32,391 nt of DNA from Pseudomonadota bacterium (GTDB lineage: Bacteria > Pseudomonadota > Alphaproteobacteria > HIMB59): the NCBI GenBank assembly GCA_027623775.1, contig JAQBUY010000004.1, positions 1-32,391 of the forward strand. The letters are read 5' to 3'. The notes below the pieces were generated by a model. That model saw only the letters and a program-made list of their open reading frames with translations. It did not search any database and was not told the origin of the DNA. Made by a program: the position numbers and the translations under genes. Positions 1,292 through 31,503 of the stretch are shown here, piece after piece (position 1 is the stretch's first letter; every line of letters begins with the position of its first letter).

Positions 1292-1771
1292 TTAAGTTTT
1301 TAGAAATCTAAGTATATTTTCATTATTAAAACCAGCCTGAAATAATTTTTTTCTAAATGTTAGCTCGTCTTCAGTTTTAAGTTTCTTTTTTTTGACAAAA
1401 TTTACCAATATATCAAATTCTAAATCTGGATTCTCAAAGATGGTATTGGTAATAAATTCATCAACATCATTTTTATCAAAGCCCTGAACATAAAATTTAT
1501 TTTTCATTTTGTTGATTGAGAACATTAATCGACAGTAATAATTAAATAAAGACTCTAAGTAGTGCTTTTCATTCAAAATTTTAAGATCAACTAATTTTTC
1601 AAGAACTTGCTCTATAGAAAAACCTAAATCTTCAATACTAACCTTATATTTATAAGCATACCTTTTACTCTTGATTTTTTTTTCTAAATGTATGGCAAGT
1701 TTTTTTTTAGTAGCGGGATATCTACTTAAATAACTAATTGATTTATTAAATAAAAATTCATCTAATTCCAT
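1292..1771 (-). CDS. recX: RecX-like regulatory protein
   Basis: ISYLSRYPATKKKLAIHLEKKI...LVDLKILNEKHYLESL resembles the RecX three-helix repeat pattern. Confidence 0.65.
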   Translation of the reverse strand: MELDEFLFNKSISYLSRYPATKKKLAIHLEKKIKSKRYAYKYKVSIEDLGFSIEQVLEKLVDLKILNEKHYLESLFNYYCRLMFSINKMKNKFYVQGFDKNDVDEFITNTIFENPDLEFDILVNFVKKKKLKTEDELTFRKKLFQAGFNNENILRFLKT

Positions 1772-4990: not shown

Positions 4991-5013
4991 AACACGTTAG
5001 GTTCCGTTATTAA

Positions 5014-5418
5014 TTACTTTAAGGATCCTTCCAATATATATTTCAATATACGAAAAGCTTGTTTTTGATCCAAAGCAACAGCAGCAGAGGCGTCTACTTC
5101 TTTAAGGGCGTGCTGATGATCGTTACTATGAATAACAATCATAGATTTATTGAGCGCTGCAGCATAACCCGCATCAAAGGCCGCATTCCATTGCTTATAT
5201 TTTTCCACAATCTTTAATAGATTTCTTGGTTCGAATAGAATTAATATTAGCACCTTTCCTATCTTTCCAAAAAATTTTTTCTTCGGCTCCTAGGATTTCT
5301 ACACCGCAATTATCAGAGGCCTCATGATCGGTAACAAGAGAAGTAAATTTAACATCCAACTTTTCATTTTCACAAAGTTGCATAATTTCATCTCACCTGC
5401 CAAATATACTTTTAACAT
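5014..5418 (-). pseudogene. ytoQ: YtoQ family protein, disrupted by two frame-breaking lesions
   Basis: Pieces MLKVYLAGE (start 5418), MQLCENEKLDVKFTSLVTDHEASDNCGVEILGAEEKIFWKDRKGANINSIRTKKSIKD (5383-5195 frame) and VEKYKQWNAAFDAGYAAALNKSMIVIHSNDHQHALKEVDASAAVALDQKQAFRILKYI (5253-5014 frame) match consecutive parts of the YtoQ family. Confidence 0.8.
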
Positions 5419-5427
5419 TTATATCTC

Positions 5428-5646
5428 CTAATTATTAATTATAGTAATGGGAATAGCCATAACATAAAGAACAGCTACTACACCATAACAAGACAGTAAT
5501 TGTTTCATCCTTTTTTCAGTGCTGATCGAATCCGAGCCTTTACTAATATCATTATAAGTTAAACCTATCCACAAAGGTAAACCAAAGAGATTAATAATAA
5601 AATGCATCCATATCGGCATAGATAAGAGTATTTCAAGTAATGCCAT
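5428..5646 (-). CDS. Small integral membrane protein, unknown function
   Basis: 72 aa ORF with about two hydrophobic segments, same strand as neighbours. Confidence 0.5.
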   Translation of the reverse strand: MALLEILLSMPIWMHFIINLFGLPLWIGLTYNDISKGSDSISTEKRMKQLLSCYGVVAVLYVMAIPITIINN

Positions 5647-5665
5647 TAAGCCCTCTCCCCATAAA

Positions 5666-5889
5666 TCAGTCAGTAATTAAATTAACTATTTTTTTTGCAA
5701 GAGGCGCAACAATACTGGAAACTAAAAGAGCAAGTGGTAGCGCCGCCATCCAAGCCTTACCCAACGAGATAAAAAATCTATGTCCATACCAGTATTAATA
5801 TAAGTAATGGTAAAAGACATAATAATACTCATTCCAAATCCCATAAAAAAAATGAATAAAGCTTGAGAATATTTTTTAGGAAATTTCAT
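5666..5889 (-). pseudogene. DUF2798-like small membrane protein with a single-base frameshift
   Basis: MKFPKKYSQALFIFFMGFGMSIIMSFTITYINTGMDIDFLSRWVR, then a frame change, then AWMAALPLALLVSSIVAPLAKKIVNLITD-stop; overall pattern resembles DUF2798. Confidence 0.68.
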
Positions 5890-6060
5890 TTACTTTAAAA
5901 TTATTGTAGTATCAAAGTAGTAGACAAAAAGCAGGTATGCTACTAAAAACAAAATTAATCGAATTTTATTTTTAGGGTTTTTATATTTTTCTGATTTATG
6001 TTGAACAACAAAAAACATTGCAATAGCAATAAGTGTCATAATAATCATAAACCAATTCAT
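5890..6060 (-). CDS. 56-aa small membrane protein, unknown function (not in the ORF track)
   Basis: Translation MNWFMIIMTLIAIAMFFVVQHKSEKYKNPKNKIRLILFLVAYLLFVYYFDTTIILK; stop directly abuts the ATG of the DUF2798-like gene. Confidence 0.5.
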   Translation of the reverse strand: MNWFMIIMTLIAIAMFFVVQHKSEKYKNPKNKIRLILFLVAYLLFVYYFDTTIILK

Positions 6061-6138
6061 TGAATTTATATTATCATAAAAATAATAATTTTGTAAAATG
6101 AACCGACTAGTGCGGATATTTTTATATTATAGAAGTAT

Positions 6139-6384
6139 TTATTTTAGTGCTTTTCTATAAACAAAAATAATAGCAAAAATAATTATTAGGGCGGCTATGC
6201 CTTGATCTCCTAAGTTATTCATTAGTCCGATTAGATTTTGTGTTACTGTTGAACCGAAAAAAGGAACATTTGGACCAAATAATATTTCAGCGATAACTGA
6301 TATTGCTAAAAGAAGAACACCTAATTCTATAAATTTATTTAAATAATCTTTAGTTTTTGAAATCAAATTCATCATTATTCCCAC
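6139..6384 (-). CDS. Small hydrophobic protein, paralogue of the next ORF (start probably ATG at 6375 or 6372)
   Basis: LLLAISVIAEILFGPNVPFFGSTVTQNLIGLMNNLGDQGIAALIIIFAIIFVYRKALK; SD-like AGGTGGGA upstream of the ATG. Confidence 0.65.
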   Translation of the reverse strand: MGIMMNLISKTKDYLNKFIELGVLLLAISVIAEILFGPNVPFFGSTVTQNLIGLMNNLGDQGIAALIIIFAIIFVYRKALK

Positions 6385-6394
6385 CTATCTTTTT

Positions 6395-6432
6395 CACTAC
6401 CCTAATCCTATTATTATACAATAAGGGTAGTG
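6395..6432. repeat. 9-bp perfect inverted repeat between the two small-protein genes
   Basis: CACTACCCT (6395-6403) and AGGGTAGTG (6424-6432), 20-nt spacer. Confidence 0.75.
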
Positions 6433-6444
6433 AATAAGTATTAC

Positions 6445-6666
6445 TTACTTATTATAAAATCCAAGAATAATTATGGCAGCTACTAGACCTACTATTCCCG
6501 CATTCCCTAATGATTGAACTAAGCTAACAATATTGCCAGATATAGCTCCTATAAAAGGAACATTGCCACCCAATAAACTGAGAACAATTCCTAGTCCAAG
6601 TAACGAAATAACTACCTGAGTTAAGTTGTCAAAAGTTCCTTTTAGTCCAGATAACATTTTATCCAT
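6445..6666 (-). CDS. Small hydrophobic protein, paralogue of the 6139-6384 product
   Basis: VVISLLGLGIVLSLLGGNVPFIGAISGNIVSLVQSLGNAGIVGLVAAIIILGFYNK; SD-like AAGGAG upstream. Confidence 0.65.
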   Translation of the reverse strand: MDKMLSGLKGTFDNLTQVVISLLGLGIVLSLLGGNVPFIGAISGNIVSLVQSLGNAGIVGLVAAIIILGFYNK

Positions 6667-6893
6667 TTGAGTACTCCTTTTTTTTTACATTCAGTTTTTC
6701 GAATCATTTCTCAAAACTGCTAGTAATTTATCATGTATTGAACTTAACAACTATTCGAACAATTCAAGCAAAAAGGCTATTCCATTATCTTTATATGAAA
6801 AAAAGACCATAATGGCCTATAAAAAACATAAATTTTTTCTATTAAATAAGATTAAAATCTAATTCAATAAACTGAGTAGAAATAAATATAAAA

Positions 6894-17641: not shown

Positions 17642-18670
17642 ATGACTGCTAAAAAACCTAAAATAGCGATTGTCGGAGCCACAGGAAATGTTGGAAGAGA
17701 AGTCTTAGATATAATTGATGACAGAGAAATTCAATACTCAGATTTAGTTGCTTTAGCTTCTAAAAAATCTGAAGGGATGAAAATAAATTATGGTGAAGAT
17801 AAATCCATCATCGTCAAAAATCTAAGTGACTATGATTTTAAGGGAACAAACATTGCTATATTTTCTGCAGGGGCAAGTGTTTCGAGAGAATACGCCCCAA
17901 TTGCCGCCAAACAAGGATGCATAGTAATTGATAACACTTCTCATTTTAGGACTGATCCAGATGTTCCTCTAGTTGTTTCAGAGGTTAATCCTCAAGATAT
18001 AAAAGATTTTAGAAAAAAAAATATAATAGCTAATCCTAATTGTTCTACTATAGGCATGTTGGTTGCTATTAAACCTCTGCATGATCAATTTAAAGTTAAG
18101 AGATTAGTTGTTTCTACTTATCAGTCTGTTTCGGGCGCTGGTAAGGAAGGAGAAGATGAGCTGGACAATCAGACTAGAAGTTTATTAAACAACAAAGCAA
18201 TTACAAAACAAAAATTTACAAAACAAATAGCATTTAATCTTATTCCTCATATTGACGTATTCCTTGAAGATGGAGATACGAAAGAAGAATGGAAAATGCA
18301 TCAAGAGACAAAAAAGATTTTAGATCAAAATATTGAATTAACAGCAACTTGTGTAAGAGTTCCTGTTTTTGTATCCCATTCAATGGCGGTCAATGTTGAA
18401 TTTGAAAATCCCTATGAGGAAGATCAGATCAGGGAGATTTATAAAACTGCGCCAGGATTAAAGGTTGTTGATTTTAGAGTAGATGAAGGATACGTCACTC
18501 CTGTTGAAGTGGCTGGTTTAGATCCAGTTTATATCAGTAGAATCAGAAGAGATAAAACAATAGCCAATGGTTTAAATTTTTGGTGTGTTTCAGATAATTT
18601 AAGAAAAGGTGCAGCTTTAAATACCGTTCAAATTGCAGAAATATTAATTAAAGATTATTTAAGCTCTTAG
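17642..18670 (+). CDS. asd: Aspartate-semialdehyde dehydrogenase
   Basis: KIAIVGATGNVGREV, NPNCSTIGMLVAIKPLHD, VSTYQSVSGAGKEG. Confidence 0.95.
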   Translation: MTAKKPKIAIVGATGNVGREVLDIIDDREIQYSDLVALASKKSEGMKINYGEDKSIIVKNLSDYDFKGTNIAIFSAGASVSREYAPIAAKQGCIVIDNTSHFRTDPDVPLVVSEVNPQDIKDFRKKNIIANPNCSTIGMLVAIKPLHDQFKVKRLVVSTYQSVSGAGKEGEDELDNQTRSLLNNKAITKQKFTKQIAFNLIPHIDVFLEDGDTKEEWKMHQETKKILDQNIELTATCVRVPVFVSHSMAVNVEFENPYEEDQIREIYKTAPGLKVVDFRVDEGYVTPVEVAGLDPVYISRIRRDKTIANGLNFWCVSDNLRKGAALNTVQIAEILIKDYLSS

Positions 18671-19475
18671 CTTTAAATTTATAAATACTATTTTTATTCA
18701 TCACATCGTCTGTAGTAATTTTATCACCTTTTATATTTTTAATAATTTTAAACATTAAATTAGTTGTGAGTTCTAAAGTTTTTTTGAGATTCACATTGTT
18801 AAATACATGATGAGTAAATAAGGCAGTAGATATATCTCCAGCACCATCAATTCTTTTTTTAAATTTGATATTAGGTGTCTCGATGTAAAAGCAATTTTTA
18901 TTAGATACGATCATATTAATTAAATTTTTCTTGGGACCAATAATGCTCCTGATAAATAATATTTTATTATTTTTTTTGCAGTAATTTTTAGCATCTTTAG
19001 CAATAGTATTGAATTTATAATCTTTATAATTTTTTTTTTCCAAAGTTGACCATTCAAAAAAATTTAATGAAACATGTGATGCCTCTTTGATAATTTTAGG
19101 TAAAAAATTAATCACTTCTTTACTAATATAAATTCCTGTGTCGATATCGCCAATGACTGGATCGACAACAACTTTTTTTTGTCCTTTAATAATCTGAAGG
19201 ACAGAGCACCCAATTTTGCTATTAGGAATATACCCTACTAAAAAAATATCGTCATGATTCAGCTTATATAATTTTTGAAATGCTTTAAAAAATAAAAGAG
19301 GTATATTTTGATTAATGGGTATTTCAATGAAATTTTTATTTCCTTTGTGAGAAGATAAAATAATTGTTGGAATTTGTAATACCTGATAGCTTAAATTGCC
19401 TAAAATAAGAGAAGCCGCCTGATTTCCAACTAAATCATTAAGTACATTTGACTGAATTGTAATAATTTTTTTCAT
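18648..19475 (-). CDS. PdxK/PdxY-like pyridoxal kinase, divergent; 3' end overlaps asd by 23 nt
   Basis: ITIQSNVLNDLVGNQAASLIL, VVVDPVIGDIDTGIYI, RIDGAGDISTALF (ribokinase-like anion-hole motif). Confidence 0.7.
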   Translation of the reverse strand: MKKIITIQSNVLNDLVGNQAASLILGNLSYQVLQIPTIILSSHKGNKNFIEIPINQNIPLLFFKAFQKLYKLNHDDIFLVGYIPNSKIGCSVLQIIKGQKKVVVDPVIGDIDTGIYISKEVINFLPKIIKEASHVSLNFFEWSTLEKKNYKDYKFNTIAKDAKNYCKKNNKILFIRSIIGPKKNLINMIVSNKNCFYIETPNIKFKKRIDGAGDISTALFTHHVFNNVNLKKTLELTTNLMFKIIKNIKGDKITTDDVMNKNSIYKFKAKSLNNL

Positions 19476-24318: not shown

Positions 24319-25344
24319 ATGGTTGTATGTAGGATTATGATGAATTATTCTAATTTCTCAATGCCATACTGTATTCAAGCTAGCAAACCAGGCGATTCAT
24401 CTGTTTTAATTAAAAAAGAATTTGTATTAGAAATACCCAAGGCTAATGAGATTGTTATTAAAAATGAAAGAATAGGCATCAATTTTATTGATATTTATAT
24501 TCGTAAAGGTATTTATCCATGGCCAGTTGAAAGTAATAATATGAACTTAGTTTTAGGTTCGGAAGGCGCTGGCGTTATTGAAAAGATTGGATCTGAAGTT
24601 ACAAAATTTAAAATTGGTGACAGAGTTGCTTTTTTAAAAACAAATGGTGCCTACACATCCCATAGAACTATTGAGCAAGAATTAGTTGTTCACATACCAG
24701 ACTTTATATCTTTTGATAAAGCAGCCGCCGTTATGCTTAAAGGACTTACAGTTAAGTATTTGCTAAACGATAGCTATAAAATTAAAGGACACGAAACTGT
24801 TTTATTTCATGCTTCAGCTGGCGGTGTAGGTTTAATTGCTGGCCAGTGGTTAAAGTCTTTAGGTATCAAAACAATTGGGACTGCTGGAACAGATGAGAAA
24901 TGTTCACTTGCGAAACAACATGGGTATGAGCACGTCATCAATTACAACAAAGAAGATTTTCAAAAGGTTGTAATGGATCTCACTAATGGTGAAGGGGTCG
25001 ATGTTGTTTTTGATAGCGTCGGACAGACTACAATGTCAGGTTCTTTCGGTTGTCTTAAAAAACATGGGACGTTAATCAGCTTTGGACAATCATCTGGCGT
25101 ATACACAGATTTGAAAATAAGTGATTTACAAGCAGGGTCATTTTTTCTTTCTAGACCAACTTTATTTCACTTTATTCCTATTCCTGGATGGTTAGATAAT
25201 GCTACCGCGATTTTATTTAAAATGATCAAAGAAAATAAAATGGATATTCAATATAATAATACTTATGACTTGGAAAACTTAGGTCAAGCTCATGACGAAA
25301 TCGAAAATCGTAGGACTACTGGCTCTGTTATTTTAAAAGTTTAG
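24319..25344 (+). CDS. Quinone oxidoreductase (zeta-crystallin-like MDR); start may be a downstream ATG (24340 or 24361)
   Basis: GSEGAGVIEKIGSEVTKFKIGDRVAF, VLFHASAGGVGLIAGQWLKSLG, GVDVVFDSVGQTTMSGSFGCLKKHGTLISFGQSSG. Confidence 0.9.
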   Translation: MVVCRIMMNYSNFSMPYCIQASKPGDSSVLIKKEFVLEIPKANEIVIKNERIGINFIDIYIRKGIYPWPVESNNMNLVLGSEGAGVIEKIGSEVTKFKIGDRVAFLKTNGAYTSHRTIEQELVVHIPDFISFDKAAAVMLKGLTVKYLLNDSYKIKGHETVLFHASAGGVGLIAGQWLKSLGIKTIGTAGTDEKCSLAKQHGYEHVINYNKEDFQKVVMDLTNGEGVDVVFDSVGQTTMSGSFGCLKKHGTLISFGQSSGVYTDLKISDLQAGSFFLSRPTLFHFIPIPGWLDNATAILFKMIKENKMDIQYNNTYDLENLGQAHDEIENRRTTGSVILKV

Positions 25345-26684
25345 TTACTAATTTTAATTTCATTAAAAACTTCATTTAAAGTTTCTTTAAGAGTTGAGTA
25401 CATAAAATCAATTTGTTCAGGAGTTGTTATGAAGGGAGGACATAAAACTATTGAAGGGCCTAGTGGTCTACATATCAAGCCCTTTTCAATTGCTTTGTTT
25501 GCTACTCTTTCTCCCATATTCATATGACCATCAAAAGGCTTTTTAGTTTTTTTATCTTGAACCATCTCTAGTGCGCCCATTAATCCAATTCCTCTAGCTT
25601 CACCAATAAACTCCATATCTTCAAAACTTTTTAATCCGCCCATAAAAAGTGGTTCGAGTTTTCTCACATTTTCTAATAATTTTTCCTCAATAATAATATC
25701 AATGGCCTGAAGTGCTAAAGCGCATCCGACCGGATGACCCCCAGCTGTAAATCCATGTGGGAATTCTTCTGCTGCATAGGATGCATCCATTAATTCTTTT
25801 GTAATTTCCTCTCCGGTAATCACAGCACCTAGAGGAAAAAAACCTGACGTTATACACTTAGATGCAATGATCATATCAGGTTTAATATCATAGGTAATAG
25901 AGCCCCATAAATTTCCTGTTCTTCCAAAACCACAAATAACCTCATCTGCAATCAATGGAATATTATGTTTTTTTAAAATAGGTTGAATAAGTTGAAAATA
26001 GTTTTTTGATGGAGGTATGACTCCCCCCGCACCCATGACAGGTTCAGCAAAAAAACCAGCAATTGTATCGGCACCTTCTTTTGCAATAACATCTTCCAAG
26101 TCCTGTGCCATTCTTAAGGAAAAATCTTCTTCACTTTCTCCTTCTTTGCCAAATTTCCAATAGTGAGGGCATGCTGATCTAATAAAGTCAGATAGAGGTA
26201 ATCCAAAAACATCATTATAGGGTTTGCCTGTCATTGATGCAGCTCCAACGGTAACCCCGTGATAGGAGTTATATCGAGTTATAATTTTTCTTTTTTTTGG
26301 TAAGCCTTTATGCCAATTCATAAACCATAATAATTTAACTGCAGTATCATTAGCTTCAGAACCTGAGTTTGTAAAAAAAACTTTACCTTCATCAAAAGGA
26401 GAAACTTCAATAAGTTTATTTGTTAGATTAATAGCTGGTTCAGTTATTCTTCCAAATAAAGCATGATATCCTGACAACTCTTCATATTGTTTTTGAGCTG
26501 TAGCAATCATCTTAGGATGATCAAATCCTACAACAGAATTCCAGAGACCTGAATTTCCATCAAAATATTTTTTCCCTTTCGTATCATAGACGTAAGCACC
26601 CTTGGCTTTATTTAAAACAATTGGACCATGAGAATCTAGATTCTTGAGATCGGTAAATCCGTAAAGAATATGAGAAGTATCCAT
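25341..26684 (-). CDS. Class III PLP-dependent aminotransferase (omega-aminotransferase; substrate unresolved)
   Basis: FFTNSGSEANDTAVKLLWFMNWHKGLPKKRKIITRYNSYHGVTVGAASMTG, IADEVICGFGRTGNLWGS, ASKCITSGFFPLGAV. Confidence 0.92.
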   Translation of the reverse strand: MDTSHILYGFTDLKNLDSHGPIVLNKAKGAYVYDTKGKKYFDGNSGLWNSVVGFDHPKMIATAQKQYEELSGYHALFGRITEPAINLTNKLIEVSPFDEGKVFFTNSGSEANDTAVKLLWFMNWHKGLPKKRKIITRYNSYHGVTVGAASMTGKPYNDVFGLPLSDFIRSACPHYWKFGKEGESEEDFSLRMAQDLEDVIAKEGADTIAGFFAEPVMGAGGVIPPSKNYFQLIQPILKKHNIPLIADEVICGFGRTGNLWGSITYDIKPDMIIASKCITSGFFPLGAVITGEEITKELMDASYAAEEFPHGFTAGGHPVGCALALQAIDIIIEEKLLENVRKLEPLFMGGLKSFEDMEFIGEARGIGLMGALEMVQDKKTKKPFDGHMNMGERVANKAIEKGLICRPLGPSIVLCPPFITTPEQIDFMYSTLKETLNEVFNEIKISN

Positions 26685-27070: not shown

Positions 27071-28630
27071 ATGCTTAATCTCATTCACCGAATCATAGTC
27101 AACACTCCGATTTTATTGGTAATGTTTTTCTCTCTTATTTGTATTGCCATCATGATTTACATCACGCCTGTTTTAGACAGAGATGAAGCTCGGTACGCAC
27201 AAACATCTTTTCAAATTTCAGAAACCAATGATTTTATCAATCTTAAATTTGATGAAAGTTTAAGATTAAAAAAACCCCCAGGAATTTACTGGATGCAATT
27301 TGCATCTTATAAAATTTTTAATAATTTTCTAGACAAGGAAATATGGATGTTTCGAATTCCATCTTTTTTAAGTCTCATACTGATGCTTTTATTTACTCAT
27401 AAATTAGCAAGATTATTATTTTATGATTTAAATACAATGATTCCTCTGACAGCATTAGCTGGAACAGTCATTGTTATATTTGAATCTTTACAGGCAACTA
27501 CAGATATGGCTTATACGGCATTTTCATTAATGTCTTATTATTATTTTATAAAATGTTTTCAGGAAGAAAAAAATTATTCTCATATTTTTTTTATTATAAC
27601 AAGTCTTATTGCAATGTTAATTAAAGGACCCATATTTTTAATTATTATAGGAATAGTTCTTATTTTCAAATTAGCAGATTTAAATATTCCAGTTAAGAAA
27701 AAAATAATACAACTTTCAAATTTATCTATTGTTATCTTTATATCTATTTTTTTAGCACTTCTTTATAATATTTTAACAGAAGGACAATTCTTTCAGCAAT
27801 CATTAATAAAAGATTTTGGTGGTAAATTAATAGCAACTCAAGAATCTCATGGCGGTATTTTTGGTTATTACTTATTAGGATCTTTTTTAATTGTATTCCC
27901 CATTTATCCACTTTTGATAATTGGAATTTTTTATAATTTTTTTAAGAAAATTAATTGGGATAAGAATCTTCTTATGATTTTATGTTCTATCTTTATATTT
28001 TTATTATTATTAGAGATAATTCCAACTAAACTTCCTCATTATATTTTGCCTGTAGTTCCGTTAATGGCAATTTATTTATCAAGAACTCTTGAATTCATAG
28101 AATTTAAATGGAGTAAGATATTATTAGGGTTAAATATTAGTTTTGTCATTATGTTCGTATTAATGGATTTAAAAGCTTACGAAATAACAGGTGAAAAAAG
28201 AAATAATCAATCTCTCTTCTATTATGGATTTATGATCATTCCATTAATTTTAAACCCGATATTCTTTAAAAATAATCAATCCTTATTAAATGTAGTGAAA
28301 CTATCATCACTTTCATCTTCTTTTTTAGTGTTAATAACTGTAGCTAATTTAGTTATTTTACATAAAAATATATGGATTGCTGATGGAATTGAAGACTTTA
28401 TAAATAGGCATTATGAATGTGGCCAAGATTATAATATTAATATATATGGAATTAATGAACCAAGTTTAATATTTAAGTTTTATGAAAATTATAAATTGAC
28501 AAGCGATTGTAATATTCAAATACAAGTTTCTGATTTAGATAATATGCCAATAAATAATATATCCTCAACAAATCAAACTTTTTTTAACTATTCTAATGGG
28601 AAAAAAATTAATTTAAATTTTTCAAAATAA
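27071..28630 (+). CDS. ArnT/PMT-like GT-C family glycosyltransferase
   Basis: TPVLDRDEARYAQTSFQI...LRLKKPPGIYWMQ, many TM segments, IPTKLPHYILPVVPLMA. Confidence 0.85.
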   Translation: MLNLIHRIIVNTPILLVMFFSLICIAIMIYITPVLDRDEARYAQTSFQISETNDFINLKFDESLRLKKPPGIYWMQFASYKIFNNFLDKEIWMFRIPSFLSLILMLLFTHKLARLLFYDLNTMIPLTALAGTVIVIFESLQATTDMAYTAFSLMSYYYFIKCFQEEKNYSHIFFIITSLIAMLIKGPIFLIIIGIVLIFKLADLNIPVKKKIIQLSNLSIVIFISIFLALLYNILTEGQFFQQSLIKDFGGKLIATQESHGGIFGYYLLGSFLIVFPIYPLLIIGIFYNFFKKINWDKNLLMILCSIFIFLLLLEIIPTKLPHYILPVVPLMAIYLSRTLEFIEFKWSKILLGLNISFVIMFVLMDLKAYEITGEKRNNQSLFYYGFMIIPLILNPIFFKNNQSLLNVVKLSSLSSSFLVLITVANLVILHKNIWIADGIEDFINRHYECGQDYNINIYGINEPSLIFKFYENYKLTSDCNIQIQVSDLDNMPINNISSTNQTFFNYSNGKKINLNFSK

Positions 28631-30048
28631 TGCATTTTTTTAAAAATTTAGAATTCAAAGATAAAAAAATATTATTCTTTTTTTTAATATCGATTTTGTT
28701 TTCTTTTCTTATAGACACAAAATTAACATTATTTTTTTATGGCTTTAACGAACCTTTTAAATCATTTTTTCATACAGTTACTAAATTTGGCGACTCATTG
28801 TATTATCTATTATTCATTGCATTATTTTTCTTAATCTTACGAGTTAGGAAAAATATATCTCCCATTTTTAAAAATCTATATGATTTAAATGTTTTTATTT
28901 TTTATAATATTATTCTTAGTGGAATTGTTACACAAATTCTAAAACATCTTGTTGGTAGACCTAGACCTAAAATGTTATTTTTTGATCATGAATCTTTAGA
29001 TCTTAATCTATTTACTTTTGACTCTAGTTTTCATTCTTTTCCTTCTGGGCATACATCAACTATTTTTAGTATTGTCTTTGTTTTTTATTTTTCGTTTCCT
29101 GTAATTAAAAAATACATAATTTCTTTTGGTATTTTGATAGCTCTGACAAGGTTAATAATTGGCGCTCACTATCTAAGTGATGTCATTGCTGGTTGTGCTA
29201 TTTCTTATTTTACGTTTATTTTTTTAAGAAATAAATTTTTCATCCAAGAAAGATTATTTATTAAAAAAGAAGAATTTCTTCCAAACACTTATATTTCTCA
29301 AATATCCTCTATTTGTTCAAATTTTTTTCGTGAGTACTATTTAAAAATTATTATGACCCATTATTACTTAAAATATTTTTTAATTATAATTTTCATTTCA
29401 ATAATATTTTTTATATTTCCAACAATAGATATATCTGTGAGTGGGATTTTTTATAAAGGGAATGGGAGTTTTTTTGCTAACTCATTTGATTGGAATGTTT
29501 ATCTTTTACGTGACATTCTTCTTCCTATAATAGTTTTAGCAGTCTTTTTCATACCGATTATTGGAACAACATACTGGATTATTACTAGAAAAAATTTCTT
29601 ATCTTTAACGTTAAATAATTTAGCTTATCTTTTTTTATCATCATTTCTTTCATTAGGTTTGATTGTAAATGTTATTTTAAAAAATCTTTGGGGGCGAGTT
29701 AGACCTAATGACACTATTCTTTTTGGTGGAGATCAGCCATTCTCAATACCTTGGTTAAAAGTTTCACACTGTGATCAGAATTGTAGCTTTGTTTCAGGTG
29801 ACGTGTCTGCTTATACCCTATTACTGGCTCTAATTTTAGTTTTCTCTAAGCCAAATTTAAATAAATTTGCTTATTTATTAATTATATTAATTGGAATAAC
29901 CCGTATCATGGAAGGTGGTCACTTTTTTAGTGATGTGATAATGAGCTTCATGATTACGCACTTTATTGTTAAAATCTTATTTGATTTCTTTTCTCAATTA
30001 CCTGATAATTTAAATGTTGATAAAATCGTATTTTTTAAAAACAAATAA
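28630..30048 (+). CDS. Fused double-PAP2 membrane phosphatase
   Basis: Domain 1 KHLVGRPRP...SFPSGHTS...RLIIGAHYLSD; domain 2 KNLWGRVRP...CSFVSGDVS...RIMEGGHFFSD; TAATG overlap with the upstream gene. Confidence 0.88.
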   Translation: MHFFKNLEFKDKKILFFFLISILFSFLIDTKLTLFFYGFNEPFKSFFHTVTKFGDSLYYLLFIALFFLILRVRKNISPIFKNLYDLNVFIFYNIILSGIVTQILKHLVGRPRPKMLFFDHESLDLNLFTFDSSFHSFPSGHTSTIFSIVFVFYFSFPVIKKYIISFGILIALTRLIIGAHYLSDVIAGCAISYFTFIFLRNKFFIQERLFIKKEEFLPNTYISQISSICSNFFREYYLKIIMTHYYLKYFLIIIFISIIFFIFPTIDISVSGIFYKGNGSFFANSFDWNVYLLRDILLPIIVLAVFFIPIIGTTYWIITRKNFLSLTLNNLAYLFLSSFLSLGLIVNVILKNLWGRVRPNDTILFGGDQPFSIPWLKVSHCDQNCSFVSGDVSAYTLLLALILVFSKPNLNKFAYLLIILIGITRIMEGGHFFSDVIMSFMITHFIVKILFDFFSQLPDNLNVDKIVFFKNK

Positions 30049-31420
30049 TTACTTATTATTATTTGTTTTTTTTATTCTTTTCATAAGAATTATAAGTTTA
30101 GCCATATCTCCATTAGAGCCACAGGGTGATGAAACTCAGTATTGGTATTGGAGTACATATTTTGATTGGGGGTATTATTCAAAACCACCACTAGTTGCCT
30201 GGGTAATAACTTTATTCACTTCACTCTTTGGAAGTTCGGTATTTATTCTTAAGTTTCCATCTCTTCTTGCTCATATCTTAACTTCAATTGTTTTGTTTAA
30301 TCTTTCTAGGGGGTTTAATAGAAATAAGGAAGAAAGTATATGGCTTTCTATTTCTTATTTACTTTTCTTTGCAGTCAGCCTTTCATCTAATGTTATTTCA
30401 ACAGATCCATTTCTTTTATTATTTTGGTCACTTTCTTTATATTTTTTTAAACTCTCTCTGAATGATAATTCATTCAAACAGATAGTTCTAACAAGTGTTT
30501 TTATTGCATTAGGATTTTATGCGAAGTATGCAATGATTTATTTTTTTGTATGTAGTATTTTTTTAATCATTCTTAGTGAAAATAAAAAAAAATTAATTAA
30601 AAATATTCTAATTATTGCATTTTTTGTTTCTTTATTTATTAGTCCACATATTTACTGGGTCTATAGTACTAACTGGGTTACTTTCATTCATACAAGTGAT
30701 AACTTTAACTGGGGTGTTACACTATTTAATTTTGAGCAATTATTTAATTTTATTATAAGTCAGTTTTTTATAGCTACTCCTATTGTTTTTTTTCTCTACT
30801 TAAAGGGTCTAGTAAAATTTAAAAACTTCTATCAGTCTTACGCATTTGAAATTTCTTATTCCCTTCCTATTATTATATTAATAACTATTCAAAGTTTTAT
30901 CAGTAGGGCCAATGCTAATTGGTCATCAGTTGCTTTTATAGGAATAGGAATGATTGCATCAAACATAATGTACCAAAAAAATAAAAAACTACTTTATATC
31001 AATGCCACACTTGGAGTGATGGTTTTATTTCTAGTAAGTTTTTTTATTATCAACCCTCCCAATATTTCGCCTTTTAATAAACTTCAAGGAATGGAGGGCG
31101 CTTCAACTGAAATTAAATTTTTAGACGATTCACTATTATCTGATTATATAGTTTTTGATGACCGAATGAATATCGCAAAATTTCTTTACCATTTACCATC
31201 CAAGCAAGATAAAATGAGATATTTATCAACTGGAGGTCACCCAGGCAATCATTTTGAAATGCTAATGCCTATTACTGTTGATCAACTTCAAAATAAAAAA
31301 ATTATAATGATCCATCGTTATGAACAAACTATCAAACCTTTGAAAGACCACTTATTAGTTAAACAACTTTATGAAATGCCTAATTCTAAAAACAATTTCT
31401 TTATTAGTTATTTCGAATAA
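30014..31420 (+). CDS. GT-C (GT39/83-like) family glycosyltransferase
   Basis: PLEPQGDETQYWYWSTYFDWGYYSKPPLVAWVITLFTSLFG plus multiple TM segments. Confidence 0.85.
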   Translation: MLIKSYFLKTNNYLLLFVFFILFIRIISLAISPLEPQGDETQYWYWSTYFDWGYYSKPPLVAWVITLFTSLFGSSVFILKFPSLLAHILTSIVLFNLSRGFNRNKEESIWLSISYLLFFAVSLSSNVISTDPFLLLFWSLSLYFFKLSLNDNSFKQIVLTSVFIALGFYAKYAMIYFFVCSIFLIILSENKKKLIKNILIIAFFVSLFISPHIYWVYSTNWVTFIHTSDNFNWGVTLFNFEQLFNFIISQFFIATPIVFFLYLKGLVKFKNFYQSYAFEISYSLPIIILITIQSFISRANANWSSVAFIGIGMIASNIMYQKNKKLLYINATLGVMVLFLVSFFIINPPNISPFNKLQGMEGASTEIKFLDDSLLSDYIVFDDRMNIAKFLYHLPSKQDKMRYLSTGGHPGNHFEMLMPITVDQLQNKKIIMIHRYEQTIKPLKDHLLVKQLYEMPNSKNNFFISYFE

Positions 31421-31428
31421 ATAGAAAT

Positions 31429-31503
31429 TGGCGATTTCGTCAGGACTCGAACCTGAAACGCAAGGGTCGAAACCTTGAATGATATCCATTTCACCACGAA
31501 ACC
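31429..31503 (-). tRNA. tRNA-Arg(TCG), CCA encoded
   Basis: Minus strand GGTTTCG...CAAGG-TTTCGAC-CCTTG...CAGG-TTCGAGT-CCTG...CGAAATCGCCA. Confidence 0.95.

What the first reader, a model, noticed from the sequence alone, without database searches (positions are those of the whole stretch)
27071..31420. Three-gene GT-C / fused PAP2-PAP2 / GT-C module: candidate envelope lipid remodelling system
Two polytopic ArnT/PMT-like glycosyltransferases flank a single protein with two complete PAP2 domains. The genes are overlapped (TAATG at 28628-28632; 35-nt overlap at 30014-30048), suggesting translational coupling. ArnT-like and Rgt-like GT-C enzymes decorate lipid A or core, and LpxE/LpxF-type PAP2 enzymes remove lipid A phosphates. 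A natural hypothesis is one operon that removes phosphates and adds sugars, lowering P content or surface charge. Undecaprenyl-phosphate or glycerolipid recycling is an alternative.
Basis: partly seen in the sequence, partly recalled or inferred. Interest (0 to 1): 0.72.

Follow-up and report, generated by a model that had tools for sequence, protein, structure and literature searches.

The report
Lipid A phosphate-to-sugar swap operon
Three joined genes in a tiny-genome ocean bacterium most likely strip both phosphates from the lipid anchor of its outer coat and put a sugar in each place; the two phosphate-removing enzymes have fused into one protein and each sits beside its partner sugar-adding enzyme.

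Summary
The three genes and both overlaps are real. The operon is bounded by a divergent aminotransferase gene and a minus-strand tRNA-Arg. Across Alphaproteobacteria its parts occur as two separable pairs: GT-A beside an LpxE-like PAP2 (N-type), and GT-B beside an LpxF-like PAP2 (C-type). In other alphaproteobacteria the pairs form one unfused GTA–N–GTB–C operon, or have the PAP2 domains fused in either order. The window order GTA–[N·C]–GTB puts each glycosyltransferase next to its presumed partner.

An ArnC-related GT2, a candidate donor synthase, lies in many of these loci; its orthologue is in the window's genome. Within the host order (HIMB59/AEGEAN-169 by inference) this GT2, GT-B, a motif-intact GT-A and UDP-glucose dehydrogenase occur in the window's closest relatives. 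They are missing, or motif-less for GT-A, in the rest of the genus, which keeps the fused phosphatase.

Best reading: a compact version of the known rhizobial LpxE/RgtF plus LpxF/RgtD exchange, giving phosphate-free lipid A with a sugar, perhaps galacturonic acid, at C-1 and C-4'. Substrate, positions and sugar are inferred. GT-A/GT-B could not be compared with RgtF/RgtD sequences. LpxK and Ugd were not found in the incomplete host genome.

The parts
27071..28630 (+). GT-A: ArnT-type GT-C glycosyltransferase, 519 aa; proposed to add a sugar at C-1 of lipid A (RgtF-like role)
   Evidence: PMT_2; ArnT family and solved ArnT 5EZM; profile of class GT-A proteins built without this order scores it 228 bits, GT-B profile -1.8
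27176..27196 (+). DRDEARY signature of GT-A (residues 36-42)
   Evidence: DRDE present in all 13 class GT-A proteins aligned; motif absent from the 32 full-length copies elsewhere in the genus
28628..28632 (+). TAATG stop/start overlap between GT-A and the fused phosphatase
   Evidence: Sequence and ORF coordinates
28630..30048 (+). Fused PAP2-PAP2 protein, 472 aa, proposed LpxE-LpxF double lipid A phosphatase
   Evidence: Two PAP2 stretches; in 53 of 60 relatives; motif residues invariant in both domains
28630..29265 (+). N domain: LpxE-like PAP2 (residues 1-212), proposed 1-phosphatase
   Evidence: 162 bits with class N-type profile, like Rhizobium LpxE at 167 bits and unlike E. coli PgpB/YbjG/LpxT; the N-type profile's best solved match is Aquifex LpxE, E 1.5e-11
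29347..30015 (+). C domain: LpxF-like PAP2 (about residues 240-462), CSFVSGD motif, proposed 4'-phosphatase
   Evidence: NCBIfam LpxF E 9e-24 here; unfused class member 6e-43
30014..30048 (+). 35-nt overlap of phosphatase and GT-B genes
   Evidence: Sequence; overlaps of 32-35 nt in L046, L047 and L033
30014..31420 (+). GT-B: GT-C glycosyltransferase, 468 aa; proposed to add a sugar at C-4' (RgtD-like role)
   Evidence: PMT_2; profile of class GT-B proteins scores it 326 bits, GT-A profile 0.3; predicted fold (pLDDT 88) closest to ArnT 5EZM/5F15
30125..30154 (+). GDETQYWYWS signature of GT-B (residues 38-47)
   Evidence: D39, E40, Q42, Y43, W44, W46 invariant in 21 GT-B sequences
31429..31503 (-). 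tRNA-Arg(tcg), right boundary of the operon
   Evidence: ARAGORN; beside this locus in all 17 same-genus loci read
25341..26684 (-). Divergent class-III aminotransferase gene, left boundary (not part of the system)
   Evidence: Pfam/NCBIfam; conserved left neighbour in the genus

Best explanation
The operon is a two-site phosphate-for-sugar exchange module acting on lipid A at the periplasmic face of the inner membrane. The N domain of the fused PAP2 protein removes the 1-phosphate (LpxE-like) and GT-A adds a sugar there (RgtF-like). The C domain removes the 4'-phosphate (LpxF-like) and GT-B adds a sugar there (RgtD-like). Both transferases would use a polyprenyl-phosphate sugar made by a separately encoded GT2 (G000:C153:1058-1768), perhaps a uronic acid made with the help of UDP-glucose dehydrogenase. 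Shown: gene structure, family placement, catalytic motifs, GT-A/N and GT-B/C pairing across the class, and joint occurrence of the sugar-adding parts within the genus. Inferred: lipid A as substrate, the site assigned to each domain, the sugar, and a benefit from saving phosphorus or changing surface charge.
For: Pairing, GT-B with C: in the class sample GT-B lies within 1 kb of a C-type PAP2 in 19 of 54 genomes with a C-type, 17 on the same strand (places). Pairing, GT-A with N: in 23 unfused N-type loci read, GT-A adjoins N in 14 on the same strand and lies nearby, divergent, in 2 more. L180 and L181 are unfused GTA-N-GTB-C operons. PAP2 fusions occur in both orders beside GT-A or GT-B (L183-L190), so at least two fusions arose independently; the best trees need 4 to 6 changes. 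Identity. Donor: the ArnC-related GT2 (107 bits with E. coli ArnC) lies in 15 of 40 class loci and its orthologue is in G000, G013 and G023, the genus genomes with intact GT-A and GT-B, but in none of the other 34 genus members searched. Ugd (E<1e-60) is in G013, G023 and 19 of 23 sister-family genomes and in no other genus member. Literature: Mesorhizobium loti has rgtE-rgtF-lpxE clustered (PMC5644692); Oligotropha has neighbouring lpxE/rgtF/rgtE and GalA at C-1 and C-4' (PMC7663294).
Against: No activity was measured. RgtD, RgtF and LpxF sequences of proven function were not available, so orthology to them is inferred from neighbourhood, size and family profiles. The C domain scores far below NCBIfam's LpxF cut-off (85 against 400 bits). 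LpxK and Ugd were not found in the window's own incomplete assembly. Most of the genus keeps the fused phosphatase with no GT-B and a motif-less GT-A, so dephosphorylation does not require glycosylation there. The joint losses may be a single event. Only 11 of 23 sister-family genomes have the A4-type GT2 although 22 have GT-B. The fused-protein model is only moderately confident (pTM 0.50).
Confidence: 0.75

Rival explanations
1. The fused PAP2 protein is a general lipid phosphatase (C55-PP recycling and PGP hydrolysis), and the GT-C genes are unrelated neighbours that decorate another envelope polymer.
For: LpxE enzymes also hydrolyse C55-PP and sometimes PGP (PMC6581854). PgpA is absent from all 37 genus genomes searched, including the single-contig G029. 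Most of the genus keeps the phosphatase without working GT partners.
Against: UppP/BacA is present in the window's genome and in 49 of 60 relatives. Most of the sister family has PgpA and UppP as well as the same fusion. Each PAP2 domain has its own conserved GT partner across many families. The C domain is LpxF-like, not PgpB- or UppP-like.
Confidence: 0.12
2. Same reaction logic on lipid A, but the sugar is neutral (for example mannose or another hexose), so the cell surface loses charge.
For: Neutral lipid A with mannose in the backbone is known, in Bradyrhizobium elkanii (title cited in PMC7663294's references). Ugd was not found in the window's own assembly.
Against: Ugd tracks GT-B within the order: both close relatives and 19 of 23 sister-family genomes have it, none of the other genus members do. 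Characterised RgtD/RgtF enzymes use GalA.
Confidence: 0.3
3. GT-A and GT-B glycosylate the LPS core or another acceptor, while the PAP2 domains dephosphorylate lipid A independently.
For: RgtA/B/C-type GT-C enzymes act on LPS core in rhizobia (from general knowledge). In the genus the phosphatases persist without GTs.
Against: Pairing is specific: GT-A with the LpxE-like domain, GT-B with the LpxF-like domain, as in the rgtF-lpxE cluster of M. loti (PMC5644692).
Confidence: 0.12

Closest known systems
LpxE + RgtF (+ RgtE) of Mesorhizobium loti, and the lpxE/rgtF/rgtE neighbours of Oligotropha carboxidovorans
   Same: LpxE-type PAP2 next to a roughly 550-aa GT-C with a GT2 donor synthase nearby; removes the 1-phosphate and adds GalA at C-1 (PMC5644692, PMC7663294)
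   Different: Here the LpxE-like phosphatase is fused to an LpxF-like one and the GT2 is unlinked; sugar and activity unproven
LpxF + RgtD of Rhizobium leguminosarum
   Same: LpxF-type PAP2 (257 aa) and a roughly 470-aa GT-C (473 aa) for 4'-phosphate removal and 4'-GalA addition (sizes in PMC7795004)
   Different: Here GT-B overlaps the gene of the fused double phosphatase; in R. leguminosarum the two locus numbers (RL1570, RL0684) are far apart; sequences could not be compared directly
Aquifex aeolicus LpxE (PDB 6EBU)
   Same: Best solved sequence match of the N-type and C-type profiles; has the same His-to-Asp change in PSGH as the C domain
   Different: Single domain, and also active on C55-PP and PGP (PMC6581854)
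ArnT / ArnC lipid A aminoarabinose system
   Same: GT-C transferase using an undecaprenyl-phosphate sugar made by a GT2; ArnT is the nearest solved fold to GT-B
   Different: ArnT decorates existing phosphates; this system is proposed to replace them

Membership tests
PAP2 lipid phosphatases (LPT branch) | Tripartite motif KX6RP - PSGH - (S/T)RX5HX3D in each catalytic domain | tested here: met
   Both domains keep it in 22 copies, except that PSGH reads VSGD in the second domain
LpxE (lipid A 1-phosphatase) | Sequence grouping with LpxE rather than PgpB, YbjG or LpxT | tested here: met
   Class N-type profile: window N 162 bits, Rhizobium LpxE 167, PgpB 34, YbjG 36, LpxT 14; separation from the E. 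coli references in the tree is weak (support 71)
LpxE (lipid A 1-phosphatase) | Removes the 1-phosphate of lipid A | not testable with these tools
   Needs enzymology or lipid A mass spectrometry
LpxF (lipid A 4'-phosphatase) | Passes the NCBIfam NF045633 equivalog cut-off | tested here: not met
   84.6 bits against 400; it is the best-scoring family for the domain, so 'LpxF-like', not LpxF by that model
LpxF (lipid A 4'-phosphatase) | Removes the 4'-phosphate of lipid A | not testable with these tools
   Needs enzymology
GT-C of the ArnT/PMT/Rgt group | PMT_2 domain, acidic first-loop motif, ArnT-like fold | tested here: met
   (fold tested for GT-B only)
RgtF (GT-A) and RgtD (GT-B) | Sequence orthology to the characterised enzymes | not testable with these tools
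   No named RgtF or RgtD sequence was found in the collections searched
Rhizobial-type lipid A phosphate/GalA exchange system | Phosphatase, cognate GT-C, polyprenyl-phosphate sugar synthase and UDP-uronic acid supply in one genome | tested here: inconclusive
   Phosphatases, GT-A, GT-B and GT2 present in the window's genome; Ugd in both near relatives but not detected in the 87%-complete host assembly; epimerase not searched

The most novel reading that the evidence does not exclude
A natural LpxE-LpxF fusion acts as one double lipid A phosphatase and, with its two flanking transferases, gives abundant streamlined ocean bacteria a phosphate-free lipid A with sugars at both ends. Most of the genus went further, losing the sugars and keeping a bare dephosphorylated lipid A, with the old GT-A kept as a non-catalytic or repurposed membrane protein.
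Probability: 0.4. Interest if true: 0.7.

Novelty: new variant of a known kind. Interest (0 to 1): 0.55.

Why it matters
Phosphorus limits growth in much of the surface ocean, and lipid A is a fixed phosphorus cost of having an outer membrane. If this reading holds, an abundant streamlined marine lineage makes lipid A without phosphate, which would change expectations for its surface charge, cation need, phage and antimicrobial-peptide interactions, and cellular phosphorus quota. The class-wide pairing of each PAP2 type with one GT type also gives a simple rule for predicting lipid A backbone decoration from genome sequence, and gives many unannotated 'PAP2' and 'PMT' genes a concrete testable function. 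The repeated, two-way fusion of the phosphatases is a natural experiment on coupling the two dephosphorylations.

Tried and rejected
UppP/PgpB-only role for the fused protein: weakened by UppP/BacA in the same genome and by family placement. Plasmid records as a source of named RgtD/RgtF: only a 61-residue match on an unannotated Rhizobium jaguaris replicon. Using PF13231 to find GT-A across the genus: it misses the diverged copies, so position and my own profiles were used. Reading the second domain as inactive because of His-to-Asp: rejected on the precedent of active Aquifex LpxE. Structure of the fused protein: usable per domain only (pTM 0.50), best PDB matches YodM 5JKI and LpxE 6EBU. 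PMC3608353 (RgtF paper) is not held. Promoter/terminator scan gave nothing above chance. A paper search for an LpxE-LpxF fusion found no report by title or abstract among open papers.
Full report
What is there. The operon is bounded on the left by a divergent aminotransferase gene and on the right by a minus-strand tRNA-Arg(tcg) at 31429-31503. Genes 1 and 3 (GT-A, GT-B) are GT-C transferases of the PMT_2/ArnT group; gene 2 has two complete PAP2 domains.

Host. The window is contig C51 of a 1.37-Mb, about 87% complete assembly. I infer the order HIMB59 (AEGEAN-169); this is not proven by a named match to the window itself.

The fused phosphatase. It is present in 53 of 60 relatives from two families, with catalytic residues invariant in both domains. 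The N domain is LpxE-like: a profile of unfused N-type proteins from other alphaproteobacteria, built without the order and without LpxE, gives 162 bits to the window domain, 167 to an annotated Rhizobium lpxE product, and 34, 36 and 14 to E. coli PgpB, YbjG and LpxT; the best solved match of the N-type profile is Aquifex LpxE. The tree that includes the E. coli references separates them only weakly. The C domain belongs to a CSFVSG[D/E] family whose best curated match is LpxF (E 9e-24 here, 6e-43 for an unfused member), below the curated cut-off. Its PSGH histidine is Asp, as in functional Aquifex LpxE (PMC6581854).

Two pairs. In 289 genomes sampled from the class, N-type and C-type PAP2 domains usually occur as separate genes. 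GT-B orthologues lie within 1 kb of a C-type gene in 19 of 54 genomes that have one. Reading 23 unfused N-type loci, GT-A adjoins N on the same strand in 14 and lies close by, divergent, in 2 more; some of the rest are cut by contig ends, and the loci were not a random sample. L180 and L181 carry the unfused order GTA-N-GTB-C. GT-A and GT-B are distinct families: the GT-A profile built without the order scores the window's GT-A 228 bits and its GT-B 0.3; the GT-B profile scores the window's GT-B 326 and its GT-A -1.8. PAP2 fusions in both orders sit next to GT-A (L184, L186-L190) or GT-B (L183, L185), so fusion happened at least twice; the best C and N trees need 4 and 6 changes, with modest support. 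The window's GTA-[N.C]-GTB therefore brings the two pairs together with each transferase next to its own phosphatase domain.

The donor side. A GT2 with a GxSKY signature, related to ArnC (107 bits), lies in 15 of 40 class loci read. Its orthologue in the window's genome is on another contig (G000:C153:1058-1768). Within the genus it is found only in G000, G013 and G023, which are also the only genus genomes with GT-B and with the GT-A signature motifs. UDP-glucose dehydrogenase at E<1e-60 is in G013, G023 and 19 of 23 sister-family genomes, and in none of the other 34 genus members. This fits a uronic acid donor, but the pattern may reflect one joint loss, and only 11 of 23 sister-family genomes have this GT2. 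G037 also has a second, longer GT2 with two C-terminal membrane segments that could serve instead.

What the rest of the genus did. At the same place, between the aminotransferase gene and tRNA-Arg, other genus members keep the fused phosphatase, lack GT-B, and carry a GT-A homologue without the catalytic signature: DExRY and KKPP are missing in 32 of 32 full-length copies, and the KTD, ESHG and TKLPHY motifs are missing in the three copies aligned. The sister family has the fused phosphatase followed by GT-B with the same kind of overlap, after hslVU. The phosphatase is thus the most conserved part of the system.

Mechanism. In rhizobia and relatives LpxE removes the 1-phosphate and RgtF adds GalA at C-1, LpxF removes the 4'-phosphate and RgtD adds GalA at C-4', with RgtE making the polyprenyl-phosphate GalA donor (PMC7663294, PMC5644692, PMC7795004). 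M. loti has rgtE-rgtF-lpxE clustered. Gene sizes match: RgtF 549 aa and RgtD 473 aa against most class GT-A of about 540-630 aa and most GT-B of about 470-560 aa. I conclude that the window carries a compact form of this exchange. Lipid A as substrate and the site assignment follow from family identity and neighbourhood, not from assays. GT-B's predicted fold is closest to ArnT. LpxK, which makes the 4'-phosphate, is in 48 of 60 relatives but was not detected in the window's own incomplete assembly.

Rivals. A general C55-PP/PGP phosphatase role is possible as a side activity, the more so as PgpA is missing from the whole genus, but UppP/BacA is present and the GT pairing would be unexplained. 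A neutral sugar or a different acceptor for the transferases remains open.

Novelty. The reaction logic is known; the natural LpxE-LpxF fusion, its placement between both cognate transferases, the class-wide pairing rule and the stepwise loss in the HIMB59 genus were not found in the open papers searched, although subscription journals were not covered.

Noticed in passing
L048:9779-11269 and equivalents (32 full-length copies in the genus): GT-A homologues that kept their place but lost the recognised catalytic motifs while staying open and conserved; a possible pseudoenzyme or repurposed membrane protein.
   Followed up: partly
whole genomes G000-G036: PgpA (PF04608) is absent from the whole genus, including the single-contig G029, but present in most of the sister family, so the genus must use another PGP phosphatase.
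   Followed up: partly
between the fused phosphatase gene and the ybgC-like gene in L048-L061: Variable genes around tRNA-Arg(tcg) in other genus members, including a polysaccharide lyase (PF14099) at L048:6329-7261 and unknown proteins such as L051:12143-13648; looks like a variable spot.
   Followed up: no
window 4991-6893: About 1.9 kb after tRNA-Arg(cct) without an ORF of 100 aa or more and without an Rfam match.
   Followed up: no
window 18648-19475 (-) and 1292-1771 (-): ORFs of 275 and 159 aa with no Pfam match; the first is conserved beside the superoxide dismutase gene in the genus at about 43% identity.
   Followed up: no
L062:2775-3332 (G000:C113, a 3.4-kb contig): A second, small single-domain PAP2 protein (185 aa) in the same assembly, scoring much lower than LpxE with the N-type profile; may be a contaminant contig.
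   Followed up: partly
L249, L250, L251, L252, L253, L254: GT-A and N-type PAP2 open frames overlap in these loci as listed mechanically; true starts were not resolved.
   Followed up: no
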